Assembly (NCBI GenBank): GCA_003228735.1
Contig: QIFG01000047.1
Coordinates: forward strand, 1-36,803
Reading direction: 5' to 3'
Length of the DNA stretch: 36,803 nt
Origin: Zetaproteobacteria bacterium
Lineage (GTDB): Bacteria > Pseudomonadota > Zetaproteobacteria > Mariprofundales > Mariprofundaceae
Part shown: positions 29,910-36,803 of the stretch, piece after piece
Layout: every line of letters starts with the position of its first letter
How positions within the stretch are numbered: the first letter of the stretch is position 1
Made by a program: the position numbers and the translations under genes
The notes under the pieces: model-generated
Told to the model about the DNA's origin: nothing
The model's database searches: none
What the model saw: the letters and a program-made list of their open reading frames with translations, nothing else

Positions 29910-30901
29910 TGGACAAACCGTCTGTCTGCGTACTGGGTGCTGGCTCGTGGGGCACGGCACTGGCCATCGTCCTGTCCGCGCAGGGGCGACAGGTTTGCCT
30001 GTTGGCGCGCGATACCGGCAAGGCTTCCCGCATGCAGCAGGCGCGCGAGAATTCGGCATACCTTCCGGGTATGAACTTTCCCGACAGCCTTACGGTTACC
30101 GCCGATCTGGACGAGGCCATTGCCGATTCGGCTGCTGCGGTCATCGCCCTGCCATGTGCCGTGGCGGAAGATTATGTCAAACGACTGTCTCAAAATTACG
30201 CTGGCCCAATGATTGCCGCCTGCAAGGGCCTGCACCCGGAAACCCTGCAGCGCACCGACGAAATGCTGGCGAATCATGTCGGGGAGAATCAGATCGCCAT
30301 TCTCTCCGGGCCATCGTTTGCCCCGGAGGTGGCGCGCGGGCTGCCTACCGCCATTACGATGGCGGCCCGGGATGTCGATCTGGCCAGTCAGGCGGCAAGC
30401 CTGTTTGACGACACAAGCCTGCGCGTCTACACCTGTACGGATGTGGTCGGCGTAACGCTCGGCGGCGCTTTGAAAAACGTCGTTGCCATTGCCGCCGGCA
30501 TCGCCACCGGACTGCAACTGGGACACAACGCCACCGCCGCCCTGATCACACGCGGCCTGCCCGAGATTTCACGGCTGGCCTGCGCCTGTGGAGCGAATGC
30601 TGAAACCATTCACGGCCTGTCCGGCCTGGGGGATCTGGTGCTGACCTGTACCGGGGATTTGTCGCGTAACCGGCGCTTCGGTATGGCATTGGCCCAGGGC
30701 ATGGATGTGAAATCTGCCAAACAGCATATCGGGCAGACGGCTGAAGGCGTGCGCACAGCCGAGGCTGCGTACAAGCTGGCAACGAGACACAACATCGACA
30801 TCCCGATTATGCAAGCGGTTTATGAAGTGATCAGTGGCCAGGCCACGCCTATGGATGCGGTTCAATCCCTGCTGGCCCGGCCTTCAAAATCAGAATATTA
30901 G
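29909..30901 (+). CDS. gpsA: Glycerol-3-phosphate dehydrogenase [NAD(P)+]
   Basis: 330 aa from ATG 29909, which overlaps the lnt stop (TGATG) and has AAGGA upstream; a GTG one codon earlier is possible. GpsA reduces dihydroxyacetone phosphate to sn-glycerol-3-phosphate for phospholipid synthesis. The N-terminal Rossmann motif LGAGSWGTALA, the CKGLHPE and SGPSFAPEVARGLPTA stretches, and the catalytic GGALKNVVAIAAG lysine region are all present. Confidence 0.97.
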   Translation: MDKPSVCVLGAGSWGTALAIVLSAQGRQVCLLARDTGKASRMQQARENSAYLPGMNFPDSLTVTADLDEAIADSAAAVIALPCAVAEDYVKRLSQNYAGPMIAACKGLHPETLQRTDEMLANHVGENQIAILSGPSFAPEVARGLPTAITMAARDVDLASQAASLFDDTSLRVYTCTDVVGVTLGGALKNVVAIAAGIATGLQLGHNATAALITRGLPEISRLACACGANAETIHGLSGLGDLVLTCTGDLSRNRRFGMALAQGMDVKSAKQHIGQTAEGVRTAEAAYKLATRHNIDIPIMQAVYEVISGQATPMDAVQSLLARPSKSEY

Positions 30902-30910
30902 GGCCTAGCC

Positions 30911-31438
30911 ATGGCGGACGATGATGAATTGTTCCGGCAGACCATGCGTGGCATTCGGAAGATCAATGTCAAAGACCGTGTTAATCCAGCCAGACCAAAG
31001 CCTCGCAACCCACCTTCAAATCCCGAAATGATCAGCCCGCCGCCAACTGCCAGTTCATTTGGCGGTCCCAGTCGTACCGCAACACCCTGGGTGCTGAAAG
31101 AGGACGGGGTATCTGCTAACCGGTTACGCCAGTTAGCGGCCGGCCGCCCTGCCGTAGATGCCGAACTGGATTTGCACGGCATGATTCGCGACGAGGCTTT
31201 TGCCGCCCTGGCGAAATGCATGGAACAAGCCGCCAGCAAAAACTGGCGCGTGCTGTGCGTCATTCACGGCCGCGGGCTGCATTCGAGTCAGGGCAAGCCA
31301 GTGTTAAAAGAAGCGCTCTACGGCTGGCTGGAAAACGGCCCCCATGCAGGCCATGTGCTGGCAGTTGTTCCCAAGCCGGGAACAGCCGGAGGCTCTTGTC
31401 TGGTTTTGTTGCGCCGCCAGCGCCAGGCGACTAAATAA
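30911..31438 (+). CDS. Smr-domain protein (SmrA-like)
   Basis: 175 aa. A charged, Pro-rich N-terminal half (about 1-85) precedes a C-terminal Smr domain with the LDLHGMIRDEA motif and IHGRGLHSSQGKPVLK. Smr domains bind or nick nucleic acids; stand-alone proteins of this size in proteobacteria (YdaL/SmrB types) include ribosome-rescue nucleases, but the role here is not established. It ends by overlapping 8 bases tail-to-tail with the next, opposite-strand gene. Confidence 0.88.
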   Translation: MADDDELFRQTMRGIRKINVKDRVNPARPKPRNPPSNPEMISPPPTASSFGGPSRTATPWVLKEDGVSANRLRQLAAGRPAVDAELDLHGMIRDEAFAALAKCMEQAASKNWRVLCVIHGRGLHSSQGKPVLKEALYGWLENGPHAGHVLAVVPKPGTAGGSCLVLLRRQRQATK

Positions 31439-31997
31439 ATGTCTCGGGCAGGGAGATGCCTGAATCTGATGCCAATTTGATCAGAAGCAGAATCAATACC
31501 AGCAGAGACAGGCCGAAAATAACAAAGGCAACCAGGATGAACATCAGCGCCGCACCGCCGCCAACCCGGGCATGGGAAACCAGGCCCTGCCAGTTCAGGT
31601 ACAGGCTCCAGACATAAGCAATCATTCCGAATACGGGCACCCACGATAAAAGCAGGGGTGCGGCACCATAGGCGCATATCTGGAAGGCGTCCGCCGTCCC
31701 CAGATCAACCTTGCAAAAAGTGCGGCTGGCCCAACCCAGATACCAGGCCCACAGCCATGTGTTGAGAATGCCGAAAATCAAAGTGACAGGAAGAATAAAA
31801 ATAATGGTCACAACGCCACTGAAAAGGCTAAGCGCCAGGGCGGGAACAACCAGATAGACAGACAATAGCATAAGGCTGTTTTTGTAGTCGGTCGCCCTGG
31901 GCATGGCCTCGAAAAAGCCTGCCGGGGAACCCAGGATGCCCTTGGTGGCAGCCACCAGGGTTTCACCCACACGCTCGCTGGAGAAGTAAGTCGACAT
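31431..31997 (-). CDS. Yip1-type membrane protein
   Basis: 188 aa from ATG 31997, set by GGAGG 8 bases upstream; a GTG five codons earlier lies in that site. About five hydrophobic segments. A soluble N-terminus with ATKGILGSPAGFFEAMP precedes the membrane core, as in bacterial Yip1/DUF1282 (YohC-like) proteins. Function is unknown. It is transcribed alone against the gpsA-smr unit. Confidence 0.75.
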   Translation of the reverse strand: MSTYFSSERVGETLVAATKGILGSPAGFFEAMPRATDYKNSLMLLSVYLVVPALALSLFSGVVTIIFILPVTLIFGILNTWLWAWYLGWASRTFCKVDLGTADAFQICAYGAAPLLLSWVPVFGMIAYVWSLYLNWQGLVSHARVGGGAALMFILVAFVIFGLSLLVLILLLIKLASDSGISLPETFI

Positions 31998-32130
31998 ATC
32001 TGTTTCCTCCACTTCTAATCAAGCCATCGTAACGCCAAACCGGCAACGTGAGAACTATGCCGGGATTGTAACATGGGACATAGGTTTATCTGGATGCTGC
32101 AATCGCACCATGTCCGGCTATACTGCCGGT

Positions 32131-32541
32131 ATGAGATTTCTGATCGCTTTGCCTGCTCTGCTTGTCATATCCACACTGACCGTTCCGGCTATCGCTGCGG
32201 ATGACGAACCCATACTGGCGCCACCCACAGGCATTCACGATACGCCCGAAGCGCGCGAGACCGTTCATGCTTCGGACTCCGATGGAGACCTGAGTAAGGA
32301 ATTCAGCTCCCCTGAGCCAGGCGGAGATGGCGTGGAGGTGCGCTCTTTTAAGCGTAAGGACGGCGCCACCGTAACCGAATACGCCATCAGGGGAGAGGTC
32401 TATATGGTGCGTGTTGAACCGGGGGCGGGAATGCCTGCTTATTATCTGTACGATAACGACGGCGATGGCGTCTTTGAACGGCGTCTGCCGGGCGGCTACA
32501 AACCCATATCGCCGCCGCAATGGGTCATCAAGCGCTTCTGA
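32131..32541 (+). CDS. DUF2782 secreted protein
   Basis: 136 aa from the ATG at 32131, chosen because it begins a clean signal peptide (RFLIALPALLVIS, cleavage likely after AIA near 22). The mature part carries the DUF2782 signature: EVRSFKRKDGATVTEY, YMVRVEPG and YYLYDNDGDGVFERR. The DNDGDG stretch resembles a calcium loop. The family is common in proteobacteria and has no known function. Its 3' end overlaps the next gene by 22 bases. Confidence 0.82.
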   Translation: MRFLIALPALLVISTLTVPAIAADDEPILAPPTGIHDTPEARETVHASDSDGDLSKEFSSPEPGGDGVEVRSFKRKDGATVTEYAIRGEVYMVRVEPGAGMPAYYLYDNDGDGVFERRLPGGYKPISPPQWVIKRF

Positions 32542-33146
32542 TTCCCAGACTTATTCTGATTACAGACCGCTCACGCATCGAAGGTGAGCGTTTCTTCGAG
32601 GTTGTTGATGCTGCCCTGGCAGGCGGCGTTGATGCGGCTCTGGTGCGTGAAAAGGATATGACGAGCGCCAAGCTGCTTTCTTTCTGCGCCAGGATTCGGA
32701 CGCTGACGAACAAGCATCACGCAAAATTGATCGTACATTCGCAGGCCGATGTGGCGAAGGCCGTGGGAGCAGACGGCGTGCACGTGGCTGCCGCAGCTAT
32801 TGATGAGATTCCACTTATCCGTCAGTGGCTCAACGATTCAAACATCCTGCTTTCCGCCTCATGCCATAATGAAGAGGAGCTTGCTGCCGCCTCCAGCCAT
32901 GGCGCAGATTTCGCCCTGCTTTCGCCCGTATTTCCAACCGGGAGCCATCCGGGCGCGCCGCACCTGGGTGCCAACCGATTTCATGAAATCGCAAAACACT
33001 CGCCTATGCCGGTGATCGGCCTGGGCGGCATTTCGGTTGAAAATCGGAGTGAGATTGCGGATTTCGGCGCAGCAGTGATCGGCGCCATTCTGGATGCCAG
33101 CGACCCGGAAGCCGCCGCAAGGCTGCTTTCGGCTTCCAGCCGGTGA
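32520..33146 (+). CDS. ThiE/TenI-like thiamine phosphate synthase-fold protein
   Basis: 208 aa TIM-barrel protein of the ThiE/TenI superfamily. ThiE joins the thiazole and pyrimidine halves of thiamine. Seen are LILITDRSR, LVREKDM, HSQADVAKAVGADGVHV, SASCHNEEEL, SPVFPTGSHPGAPHLG and VIGLGGIS. The SHPGAPHLG segment differs from the TPTK-type phosphate loop of true ThiE and is closer to the ThiE-like domain found in MutT-ThiE fusions, so enzymatic identity is uncertain. The ATG at 32520 lies inside the DUF2782 gene without a ribosome-binding site; coupling is likely. Confidence 0.75.
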   Translation: MGHQALLIPRLILITDRSRIEGERFFEVVDAALAGGVDAALVREKDMTSAKLLSFCARIRTLTNKHHAKLIVHSQADVAKAVGADGVHVAAAAIDEIPLIRQWLNDSNILLSASCHNEEELAAASSHGADFALLSPVFPTGSHPGAPHLGANRFHEIAKHSPMPVIGLGGISVENRSEIADFGAAVIGAILDASDPEAAARLLSASSR

Positions 33147-33175
33147 GGGTCAGCAGGAAAAGGCAATCCGCTCTA

Positions 33176-33195
33176 TGCAGGCTGCCGGGCTTGCA
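33176..33195. terminator. Hairpin between convergent genes
   Basis: TGCAGGC (33176-33182) pairs with GCTTGCA (33189-33195), one wobble, with a 6-base loop. It lies between the convergent thiE-like and RRM genes. No T run on either side. Confidence 0.35.
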
Positions 33196-33199
33196 GTGA

Positions 33200-33481
33200 C
33201 TACCAGCGTTCGCCGCGTCCGCCGCCGCCACCACCGCGTGGTTCACGAGGCTTGGCCTCATTCACGCGCAGGCTGCGACCGCCAAACTCGGTCCCGTCCA
33301 GGGCTTCAACTGCCTCGTCCGCACCCGATTCCATCTCGACAAAACCAAAGCCGCGCGGGCGGTTTGTTTCGCGATCCGCAATGAGTTTCACAGATGTTAC
33401 GGCACCGTGCTGTTCAAACAGATCCTGAATTTCTTCTTCTGTAGCGCTGAAGGGCAGATTGCCCACATAAATGGTCTTCAT
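33200..33481 (-). CDS. RRM-domain RNA-binding protein
   Basis: 93 aa. A single RRM with RNP2 IYVGNLPF (4-11) and RNP1 RGFGFVEM (43-50), followed by a short Gly-Arg tail (RGGGGGGRGERW). Small proteins of this type (Rbp family) bind single-stranded RNA and in several bacteria are induced by cold. The start has AGAGGAG about 12 bases upstream. An 8-bp inverted repeat lies about 90 bases upstream (33569-33592). Confidence 0.93.
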   Translation of the reverse strand: MKTIYVGNLPFSATEEEIQDLFEQHGAVTSVKLIADRETNRPRGFGFVEMESGADEAVEALDGTEFGGRSLRVNEAKPREPRGGGGGGRGERW

Positions 33482-33568
33482 AATGACATTGTTCTCCTCT
33501 TGTTTAATCCCTCCCTCACAACCATGAACCGAATACGGCGACGATCTGCAAGGTCTAACTCGCTGGCA

Positions 33569-33592
33569 GCATATAGAAAAAACCCTATATGC
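33569..33592. repeat. Inverted repeat upstream of the RRM gene
   Basis: GCATATAG (33569-33576) and CTATATGC (33585-33592) are perfect complements separated by 8 bases. Read on the minus strand, the loop is GGGTTTTTT-like. It could be an operator, a hairpin in the leader of the RRM mRNA, or the terminator of another transcript. Which one is not decided. Confidence 0.55.
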
Positions 33593-33666
33593 GCCATGCG
33601 TTGTTAGGTTTGTTTGCTTGATGCAATTGGCCTTCTGCCCGGCACCCTCAGGAGATGGCGGCCAGC

Positions 33667-34077
33667 CTATTCTGCGACGAACTGTTCGATGCGTACCCTG
33701 ATCTGATCCCGAACGCGGCGGAACTCGGCCATGATTTCCTCCTCGTTGCCGCTGGCCTTGGCCGGATCATCGAACGGCCAGTGCTGCTTTTCACAACTTG
33801 CCGGAACAGCCGGACAGGTTTCATCGGCATTGCCGCAGACGGTTACGAGCAGGTCGAGCTTATCCAAAATGGCCGGATCAAGCGCCTCGGACTCCTGGCC
33901 GGAAATATCCACACCGGCCTCATGCATCACGGCAATGGCGCGCGGGTTTTTTCCATGCGCCACAATGCCGGCTGAAAAAACCTCGAAGCGGTCACCGCCC
34001 AGATATTTGAGCCAGCCTTCGGCCATCTGCGAACGGCAGGAATTGCCCGTACAGAGAAATAAGATGCTCTTTTTCAT
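33667..34077 (-). CDS. arsC: Thioredoxin-coupled arsenate reductase ArsC
   Basis: 136 aa, low-molecular-weight phosphatase fold. It reduces arsenate to arsenite using thioredoxin. The P-loop [10 protein letters not shown] has the nucleophile Cys9 and Cys14, and the relay cysteines are Cys81 and Cys88 in [10 protein letters not shown], with a further Cys95. [11 protein letters not shown] follows as in the family. The start overlaps the ACR3 stop (34074-34077, ATGA), so arsenite made here is exported by the neighbouring pump. Confidence 0.95.
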
Positions 34078-35132
34078 TCTTTTCCCCTCTCGATCTTCAT
34101 ATCCGATTCATACCACGTCCTGCTGCGATTCACGATACCGACCACCGTCAACATCACCGGCACCTCGACCAGCACGCCAACCACGGTCGCCAGCGCGGCT
34201 CCTGATTCAAAGCCGAACAGGGCAATGGCCGTAGCCACGGCCAGCTCGAAGAAATTCGAGGCGCCGATCAGAGCCGATGGCGCAGCCACCGAATGGGCAA
34301 CACCGAGCTTCCGGTTCAGCAGATAGGCCAGGCCCGAATTGAAATAGACCTGGATGATAATGGGAATGGCCAGCAGCAGAATAACGACCGGCTGGGCCAG
34401 AATCTGTTCGCCCTGAAATCCGAACAGCAGCACAATCGTAACGAGCAGCGCTGCCATCGAAATCGGGTTCATGGTATGCAGCGCGTCATCGAGTTTGCCG
34501 CGCGCCAGCAGAAGCTTCCGCCCTGCATAAGCAAGCAATACCGGCACCACGATATAAAGCAGCACGGACAGGAACAGCGTATCCCAAGGCACGGTAATCG
34601 CAGCGGCCCCAAGCAGCAGCCCGACAATCGGCGCAAAGGCAAACACCATGATGACATCGTTCAGCGCCACCTGGGTCAGCGTGAAATGCGCATCGCCACC
34701 GCACAGGCGCGACCAGACAAACACCATTGCCGTGCAGGGCGCGGCGGCAAGGATGATAAGCCCGGCAATATAGGAATCGATCAGTCCCGGATCGAGCCAG
34801 GGAGCAAAAAGATAGCGCAGGAAAATCCAGCCCAGCAGCGCCATTGAGAATGGTTTGACCAGCCAGTTGATGCCGAGCGTGACCATGATGCCGCGCTTGT
34901 GTTCCCAGACCTCATGCAGGGCCGAGTAATCGATCTTCAGCAGCATCGGCAGGATCATGGCCCAGATCAGCACGGCCACCGGCAGGTTGATGTGCGCGAT
35001 CTCCATGCCTCCCAGTGATTGAAAGACAGGAGGGAAGAACGTGCCGAGCGCAATGCCGGCAGCGATGCACAGGAACACCCAGACTGTAAGATACCGGGCA
35101 AAGATTCCCATGCTCTGGCTTTCCCTGGACAT
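34074..35132 (-). CDS. acr3: ACR3-type arsenite efflux permease
   Basis: 352 aa, about ten membrane helices. It exports arsenite from the cytoplasm. The conserved cysteine of helix 4 is in [14 protein letters not shown], and the second half carries [18 protein letters not shown]. It is of the ACR3 family, not ArsB. The start at 35132 has AGGAGG 6 bases upstream, inside the inverted repeat at 35133-35158. No arsR repressor gene is in the window. Confidence 0.95.
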
Positions 35133-35158
35133 ATTGCGCCTCCTGAACCGGGCGCAAT
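35133..35158 (-). promoter_or_regulatory. Hairpin covering the acr3 ribosome-binding site
   Basis: ATTGCGCC (35133-35140) and GGCGCAAT (35151-35158) are perfect complements with a 10-base loop. In the mRNA the stem includes the second half of the AGGAGG Shine-Dalgarno and ends right at the ATG. It could hold translation low until the structure is opened. Confidence 0.5.
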
Positions 35159-35180
35159 CATATCCGCCTATGCGGATGTG
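35159..35180. promoter_or_regulatory. Palindromic candidate operator upstream of acr3
   Basis: A 22-base dyad with 9 of 11 symmetric pairs, core ATCCGC/GCGGAT. It lies 27 bases before the acr3 start. ArsR/SmtB repressors bind imperfect palindromes of this size near ars promoters, so it may be the arsenic-responsive operator. No regulator gene is adjacent. Confidence 0.45.
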
Positions 35181-35437
35181 TAAATGCCTTTTCTTTCAGG
35201 ATGCTTTCAGGACGCACTTCTGTGTTCGAGCAGAATGAATGCTGTGGGAACCCCAAAATGGGCGTACTCCGCCACAATAATATGAAGTGCTATAAGGAGT
35301 TTCTTTGTATGCTCTCTATGAAAATATTCTAGCAACCCATATTTTCAGCTAAGTACCAGCGTAAGAGGGAGTTTTAATCAGCTTTTCTGTTCAAGTAAAC
35401 TTTACCGATATAGCGTGAGCAAGTTGGAGGAATATAA
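35181..35437. other. AT-rich non-coding stretch, boundary of transferred DNA
   Basis: No credible gene. The sequence becomes visibly AT-richer to the right. A short direct repeat CTTTCAGGA occurs twice at about 35193-35212. GGAGG at 35426-35430 serves the methyltransferase ATG at 35438. No clear promoter or control-protein box is seen. Confidence 0.5.
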
Positions 35438-36571
35438 ATGCCTGAGTGCTATGAATTTTTTGCAGGTGGGGGCATGGCTCGCTTGGGGCTTGGCAATTAA
35501 TGGGATTGCACTTTCTCAAATGATATTGACCCGAAAAAAGCAGCCTCTTATGGCCAACACTTTGGTACTAATAATTTACATGTCCGAGATGTTCGGGCGG
35601 TAAAGTTGAAAGACCTACCAGGTCATGCTGCTTTGGTTTGGAGCTCTTTTCCGTGCCAAGATCTGTCGCTCGCTGGGAAGGGTGAAGGCCTGACAGGTGA
35701 TAGAAGCGGGACATTTTGGCCCTTCTGGAATCTCATGAATGGACTGTATCGCGAAGGCCGTGCACCAAGTCTTATTGTGCTTGAAAACGTGTGTGGCACG
35801 ATCACCTCCAATAACGGCAAGGACTTTTCTGAAATCGCAAGGGCTATCGTCGAGATGGATTATAGCTTCGGAGCTCTGGTGATGAATGCAGCTCATTTCC
35901 TCCCGCAGTCTAGACCCAGACTATTCATAGTGGCTGTTGCTCCCAGCATTCCACTGCCAGAAGAGATTACTCGTGCCGACCCAAATGTACTGTGGCATTC
36001 TCGAAACTTAGTCGAAGCGAAATTTAAGCTTCCTAACCGTGAGCAAAGTCGTTGGGTATGGTGGAATCTTCCGACCCCAAATGTTCGGCAAACAGTATTG
36101 GCAGACCTCATTGAGGAACATCCACATGGAGTAGATTGGAATACGGAAATTGAGACGCAAGCACTGCTACGTATGATGTCGCTCTTGAATCGTGCAAAGG
36201 TTCGCTCTGCACAAAGAGAAGGAGTATTGCGTACTGGCTCCCTTTACAAACGCACGCGCAATGGCGTGTGCCGCGCAGAGGTGAGGTTTGATGATATGGC
36301 CGGATGTTTGCGTACACCTTCAGGAGGATCGAGTCGTCAGACGATTATTGTAGTTCAAGGAGAGTCTGTTCGAACCCGACTTCTGTCACCTCGAGAAGTT
36401 GAACGCCTCATGGGGTTGCCGGAGGACTACGTATTACCTGAAAACTATAACGATGCTTACCGGTTAGCTGGCGATGGTTTGGTCGTACCTGTTGTGTCCC
36501 ACTTGGCAACTAATTTACTAACCCCTATCGGGCAAGCAGTTGTACAACAGCATCAACCGATAGCTGCGTAG
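35438..36571 (+). pseudogene. DNA (cytosine-5) methyltransferase with in-frame TAA
   Basis: One frame of 377 codons plus stop, interrupted by TAA at codon 21 (35498-35500). The ATG at 35438 has GGAGG upstream. C5-methyltransferase motifs lie on both sides of the stop: motif I EFFAGGGMARLGLG before it; then NDID, motif IV SSFPCQ with catalytic Cys73, motif VI ENV (116-118), motif VIII QSRPR (157-161), a target-recognition region, REVERLMGLPEDY (IX) and GDGLVVPVVSHLATN (X). Restart after the stop would lack the SAM-binding motif I, so the gene is probably inactive unless read through. Alternatively it is a sequencing error of a GAA, CAA or AAA codon. Composition is AT-richer than its neighbours. 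Confidence 0.85.
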
Positions 36572-36587: not shown

Positions 36588-36761
36588 ATGCCGATTCAGT
36601 CATCTGACACTAAGTCACCCCCATTCGAGACGGAAGAACTGCGTCGAAAATTAACAGCGTTTCTTGATCAAGAAGTTGAAGACCCGATCTCTGGCCAACC
36701 AAGAGTTTTGGGGGGTCTCCGCGGAAGCGTGTGGGTAAATTTAACATTAGAGCAGGCGTAA
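36588..36761 (+). pseudogene. Probable N-terminal remnant of the partner restriction endonuclease
   Basis: 57 codons (ATG 36588, TAA 36759-36761), beginning 16 bases after the methyltransferase. The segment FETEELRRKLTAFLDQEVED and RVLGGLRG resembles, from memory, the N-terminus of GIY-YIG-type restriction enzymes found beside C5 methyltransferases, in which the nuclease motif would follow directly. Here the similarity stops at about codon 47 and the remaining sequence to 36803 has stops and no nuclease motif, so the gene appears cut by a deletion or insertion. The family assignment is inference. Confidence 0.4.
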
Positions 36762-36803
36762 GGCATTGAAACCGTGTAGATATTCATGGATTTTATGCCG
36801 ATA

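What the first reader, a model, noticed from the sequence alone, without database searches (positions are those of the whole stretch)
35438..36571. Cytosine methyltransferase with a stop codon between motif I and the rest
All main C5-methyltransferase motifs are intact except for a TAA at codon 21. If the stop is real, the enzyme is dead or depends on read-through. Lack of other damage suggests a recent event, possibly phase-like on/off silencing.
Basis: seen in the sequence. Interest (0 to 1): 0.5.

Follow-up and report, generated by a model that had tools for sequence, protein, structure and literature searches.

The report
Dead, island-borne restriction-modification system
The cytosine methyltransferase with an early stop codon is one gene of a wrecked bacterial DNA-defence system whose cutting-enzyme gene is also broken in two next to mobile DNA, so this looks like ordinary gene decay rather than a switch.

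Summary
Window 35438-36571 is a full-length C5-cytosine methyltransferase (M) frame with one in-frame TAA (codon 21, 35498-35500); of 33 other related loci aligned, 32 cover that codon and none has a stop. On/off switching is not supported (no repeat at the stop), nor read-through (no TAA-reading tRNA among 44 found).

The next gene (36588-36712) is the start of a GIY-YIG nuclease (R). It ends at the terminal repeat of an insertion sequence (36713), where the contig stops. The rest of R, followed by an open vsr, lies on another contig of the same genome (C24). The genes beside the two pieces, acr3 here and arsR on C24, are direct neighbours in 16 of 27 relatives with an acr3 match. So a vsr-R-M island was inserted between arsR and acr3 and later decayed: R broken, M carrying a nonsense codon.

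Best reading: a dead type II restriction-modification system in an insertion-sequence-rich genome; R loss probably came first (inference). A sequencing error or strain polymorphism at one codon cannot be excluded, but would not restore R. New member of a known kind; low interest.

The parts
34074..35132 (-). acr3, arsenite efflux transporter: host gene at the island's edge
   Evidence: NCBIfam TIGR00832, 376.1 bits, cut-off 282.8; next to an ArsR gene in 16 of 27 relatives with a match
35438..36571 (+). C5-cytosine methyltransferase gene (M) with a nonsense codon
35498..35500 (+). in-frame TAA, codon 21 of M
36588..36712 (+). 5' piece of the GIY-YIG nuclease gene (R), 41 codons and two bases; the 3' piece is on contig C24 (C24:22494-23045, minus strand)
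   Evidence: matches L025, L030, L031; own-genome search with L025 R gives this place and C24 only
36713..36803 (.). end of an insertion sequence: terminal repeat 36713-36736, then the element up to the contig end
   Evidence: 91 bases identical to an end of C14, 90 to an end of C38; terminal repeat at 28 contig-end places

Best explanation
This is the M gene of a decayed type II restriction-modification system with the order M - R (GIY-YIG nuclease) - vsr, which had been inserted as an island between the host genes arsR and acr3. R was broken at about codons 41-43, at an insertion-sequence end, by an insertion or a rearrangement; its two pieces lie on two contigs. M carries a nonsense codon at codon 21 that leaves a 20-residue peptide without a catalytic centre; vsr remains open. 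Shown: the stop, the split R, the insertion-sequence end, the synteny with relatives. Inferred: that both activities are lost, and that R was lost before or together with M, because a live R without M would cut the host's DNA.
For: Single TAA in a frame homologous on both sides. Constraint in the rest of M: differences from L021 by codon position 77/59/218, dN 0.20, dS saturated; no excess on the window's branch with 7 outgroups, chi-square 0.33-3.13. R 5' piece ends at a repeat shared with other contig ends. L025's R finds two places only: residues 10-52 at the window's end, 44-225 on C24. Vsr follows R on C24; L025 has M-R-vsr in that order. ArsR gene 70-457 bases upstream of acr3 in 16 of 27 relatives with an acr3 match. 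No second M match in the genome. No TAA-reading tRNA in 44 places. G+C 0.52-0.65 before the island, 0.43-0.51 in it.
Against: No reads: the TAA could be an error or a minority variant. The gap between C10 and C24 is not assembled: C24's R piece abuts a MORN-repeat frame and an insertion-sequence end whose target duplication pairs with contig C98, not with the window, so the break is not a simple insertion. No partner end or duplication was found for the window's element, and no PF01610 transposase in the genome. L021, the closest M relative, has vsr after M but no match to this R within its 5 kb flanks; only 9 of 50 related loci have an R match at 1e-8, four of them weak, so M of this family is not always paired with this R. 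In 7 of 27 relatives arsR and acr3 are unlinked or arsR was not found.
Confidence: 0.85

Rival explanations
1. The TAA is a sequencing or assembly error, or a minority allele in a mixed population; M is intact in most cells as a solitary methyltransferase while R is broken.
For: The rest of M is conserved and constrained; the genome is a 100-contig draft and the gene lies 232 bases from a contig end.
Against: Nothing in the sequence points to an error; R is independently broken, as expected for a dying system.
Confidence: 0.12
2. M is made by read-through or phase-like switching at codon 21.
For: Few further lesions in M.
Against: No repeats at the site; no UUA-anticodon tRNA in 44 places; none of the 32 other loci covering the codon has a stop there.
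Confidence: 0.02
3. A split methyltransferase: translation restarts after the stop and the fragment is active alone or with the 20-residue peptide.
For: An open frame of 321 codons starts at TTG 35606; split C5 methyltransferases exist (M.AquI, recalled).
Against: That fragment lacks motif I and everything before about residue 57; no related locus shows a split here; the known split lies elsewhere in the protein (recalled).
Confidence: 0.01

Closest known systems
Disrupted restriction-modification loci of Mycoplasma agalactiae (PMC2824730; search listing and found passages seen)
   Same: An insertion sequence lies between a dcm-type M gene and its Sau96I-like R gene in strain 5632; several M and R genes are listed as pseudogenes in strain PG2
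   Different: There the insertion lies between the two genes, and the hsdR stop in PG2 comes from a poly-A tract; here R itself is cut and M has a nonsense codon outside any tract
Eco29kI, a GIY-YIG type II restriction endonuclease (PMC1952068; abstract and found passages seen)
   Same: GIY-YIG nuclease as the R partner of a DNA methyltransferase
   Different: This R family shows no sequence or profile match to any solved structure; recognition site unknown here
M - GIY-YIG R - vsr locus in L025 (Woeseiaceae MAG) and M with GIY-YIG R on plasmids
   Same: L025 has the same three genes in the same order and strand; in 5 plasmid stretches fetched, of 14 records hit by R, an M match lies nearby
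   Different: Those frames are open; here M and R are broken. In L079 and L080 M is on the other strand, and L082's M is only 34% identical

Membership tests
C5-cytosine DNA methyltransferase | Match to the family model over the curated cut-off | tested here: met
   PF00145 110.9 bits, cut-off 22; TIGR00675 112.7 bits, cut-off 100.65, for the part after the stop
C5-cytosine DNA methyltransferase | Uninterrupted frame through the SAM-binding motif and the catalytic PCQ motif | tested here: not met
   TAA at codon 21, between them; motif names recalled
Type II restriction-modification system | Methyltransferase gene next to an endonuclease gene | tested here: met
   M followed by the 5' piece of R; the 3' piece plus vsr on C24; same order in L025
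Type II restriction-modification system | Cleavage and methylation at the same site | not testable with these tools
   Needs an experiment; both genes are broken here
GIY-YIG nuclease | GIY-YIG domain match and conserved residues | tested here: met
   PF01541 over the cut-off for relatives L025 and L031; the C24 piece departs at 2 of 68 columns invariant in 7 relatives; the 5' piece alone has no Pfam match
Eco29kI-type endonuclease | Sequence relationship to Eco29kI | tested here: inconclusive
   No Eco29kI chain among phmmer or profile matches in the PDB; whether an Eco29kI chain is in that library was not checked, and Eco29kI itself was not compared directly
ISL3-like insertion sequence | Terminal repeats, 8-base target duplication, ISL3 transposase (criteria recalled) | tested here: inconclusive
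   Two related repeat forms (11 and 11 places) give 9 pairs with exact 8-base duplications; none for the window's form; no PF01610 match in the genome
Phase-variable methyltransferase | Slippery tract or invertible repeat at the lesion | tested here: not met
   None found

The most novel reading that the evidence does not exclude
M is still functional in part of the population (the TAA being polymorphic) and works as a solitary methyltransferase paired with the open vsr after R was destroyed at a mobile element: decay of a restriction-modification island caught while still segregating.
Probability: 0.06. Interest if true: 0.35.

Novelty: new member of a known kind. Interest (0 to 1): 0.15.

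Why it matters
It is a legible case of how a restriction-modification island dies: the endonuclease gene is cut at a mobile element, the methyltransferase takes a nonsense codon, and vsr is left behind. It also shows why a lone stop codon should be judged together with the neighbouring gene and the other contigs. It does not change current understanding.

Tried and rejected
Phase variation: no repeats at the stop. Suppressor tRNA: none reads TAA in 44 places; the draft is 95.6% complete and the tRNA list lacks some expected ones, so a missing one is not strictly excluded. Filing R as Eco29kI-like: no match to solved structures by sequence or profile, so left at GIY-YIG. Identifying the insertion sequence by transposase: no PF01610 match in the genome; that its body is unassembled is inference. 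Pairing the window's element end with its other side by target duplication: not found; C14 and C8 share only a 7-base near match seen by eye. The 28-place repeat count allows one mismatch; the reversed control pattern gave 1. dS is saturated, so the stop cannot be dated. Viral contigs gave two relatives, one of them the same contig as L028. Rows dropped before the column counts: L051 (duplicate of L028), L046 (alignment in two pieces), L047 and L048 (partial). In the relative-rate count I gave 7 of the 28 possible outgroups. Papers: a six-term search gave five, one of which bears on this; another listing of six was not read further.

Full report
The stop. The frame 35438-36571 encodes a C5-cytosine methyltransferase of 377 codons, one of them an internal TAA at codon 21. 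It starts with ATG behind GGAGG. The part after the stop alone matches PF00145 (1.1e-31) and TIGR00675 above its cut-off. The closest relative found is L021, a Desulfovibrionaceae MAG, 70% identical. Of 51 loci searched by tblastn at 1e-30, 34 match; only the window's own copy has a stop, and 32 of the 33 others cover codon 21. In an alignment of 30 sequences (4 loci dropped: one duplicate, one split, two partial) the stop's column is variable and the next column is W in all 30. At 72 columns invariant in the other 29 the window departs at one; at 99 columns with at least 95% agreement it departs at three. The relatives depart at 0-5 and 0-14.

Constraint. Against L021 the differences by codon position are 77, 59 and 218; dN is 0.20 and dS is saturated. 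A relative-rate count with seven outgroups gives chi-square 0.33-3.13, so no significant excess on the window's side. The stop is therefore likely to be recent compared with the split from L021, but cannot be dated.

Not a switch, not read-through. There is no repeat of 12 bases or more in 35150-35750 and no run longer than six bases in 35438-35700. The genome gave 44 tRNA places; ARAGORN on loci covering them found no UUA anticodon. The list lacks some expected tRNAs, so it is not complete.

The partner. The next frame, from 36588, matches the N-terminus of GIY-YIG nucleases in L025, L030 and L031 (E 6e-7, 1.7e-4 and 4e-7 within the 51 loci). The match ends where a repeat begins at 36713. The last 91 bases of the window are identical to an end of contig C14, and 90 of them to an end of C38. 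They open with a 24-base terminal repeat that occurs, in three main forms and with up to one mismatch to the pattern, at 28 places of the genome, each 61-74 bases from the end of its contig (reversed control 1). Two forms, at 11 and 11 places, are the two ends of one element: nine pairs share exact 8-base target duplications. The window's form (6 places with its variants) gave no exact pair.

The other half. A search of the same genome with L025's R gave two places only: residues 10-52 at the window's end and 44-225 on contig C24. On C24 the R piece is followed by an open vsr of 137 codons. M-R-vsr is the order seen with open frames in L025. The C24 piece departs at 2 of 68 columns invariant in 7 other R sequences; those depart at 0-12 of 66-78. 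Upstream of the C24 piece come an in-frame TAA, a MORN-repeat frame (PF02493) and another insertion-sequence end. That end's duplication pairs with contig C98, which carries a tRNA-Thr, not with the window. A string of six bases, TTTGGG, adjoins the break on both contigs (by eye).

Synteny. The flanking window gene is acr3 (376.1 bits, cut-off 282.8) and the C24 gene next to vsr is an ArsR-family regulator. Of 40 relatives searched, 27 have an acr3 match at 1e-60. In 16 of the 27 the ArsR match lies 70-457 bases upstream on the same strand; in 3 (G016, G046, G052) 1.2-1.5 kb; in 1 (G004) 4.0 kb; in 7 (G013, G017, G041, G042, G043, G047, G049) it is unlinked or absent from the list. The sequence before acr3 in the window resembles the arsR-acr3 spacer of G012 (by eye). 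C10 and C24 are thus most simply the two sides of one locus, in which an island on the opposite strand separated arsR from acr3. G+C is 0.52-0.65 in 30000-35199 and 0.43-0.51 in the windows from 35000 on.

Against it. L021, the closest relative of M, has vsr after M but no match to this R in the DNA held. Of 50 related loci, 9 have an R match at 1e-8, four of these only 27-32% identical; 22 have a vsr match. So this M family is not tied to one R, and the pairing here rests on adjacency in the window, on the C24 piece, on L025 and on the plasmid stretches.

Model. The island arrived with M, R and vsr. R broke at about codons 41-43 at a mobile element. Because an active R without M would cut the host's own DNA, R was probably lost first or together with M (inference from established knowledge of such systems). 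M then took a nonsense codon. Vsr is left without a second methyltransferase of this type, since the genome shows no other match to M. How the MORN gene and C98 came to lie beyond the R piece is not resolved; a rearrangement at insertion sequences is the likely kind of cause.

Known or new. Insertion sequences in restriction-modification loci and pseudogenised M and R genes are described, for example in Mycoplasma agalactiae (PMC2824730, passages seen). GIY-YIG type II endonucleases are known from Eco29kI (PMC1952068, abstract and passages seen), but this R family shows no match to solved structures, and I assign no recognition site. The finding is an ordinary case of decay; interest 0.15.

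Noticed in passing
window 36713-36736 and 27 other contig-end places of the genome: The genome is rich in insertion sequences; 28 terminal repeats lie 61-74 bases from contig ends, and nine pairs of contig ends share exact 8-base duplications, which lets those contigs be put in order.
   Followed up: partly
L064 4046-4459 (contig C24): An open vsr gene survives although its methyltransferase is broken; an orphan Vsr might affect mutation (inference).
   Followed up: no
window 34074-35438 and L064 3585-4046: The island separates arsR from acr3, which are neighbours in 16 of 27 relatives; the sequence before acr3 still resembles a relative's spacer.
   Followed up: partly
L064 5061-5609 (contig C24): A MORN-repeat frame lies directly upstream of the broken R piece; its origin is unexplained.
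   Followed up: partly
window M, column 158 of the alignment: The one departure from a column invariant in 29 relatives is D to N, possibly a second lesion in M.
   Followed up: no
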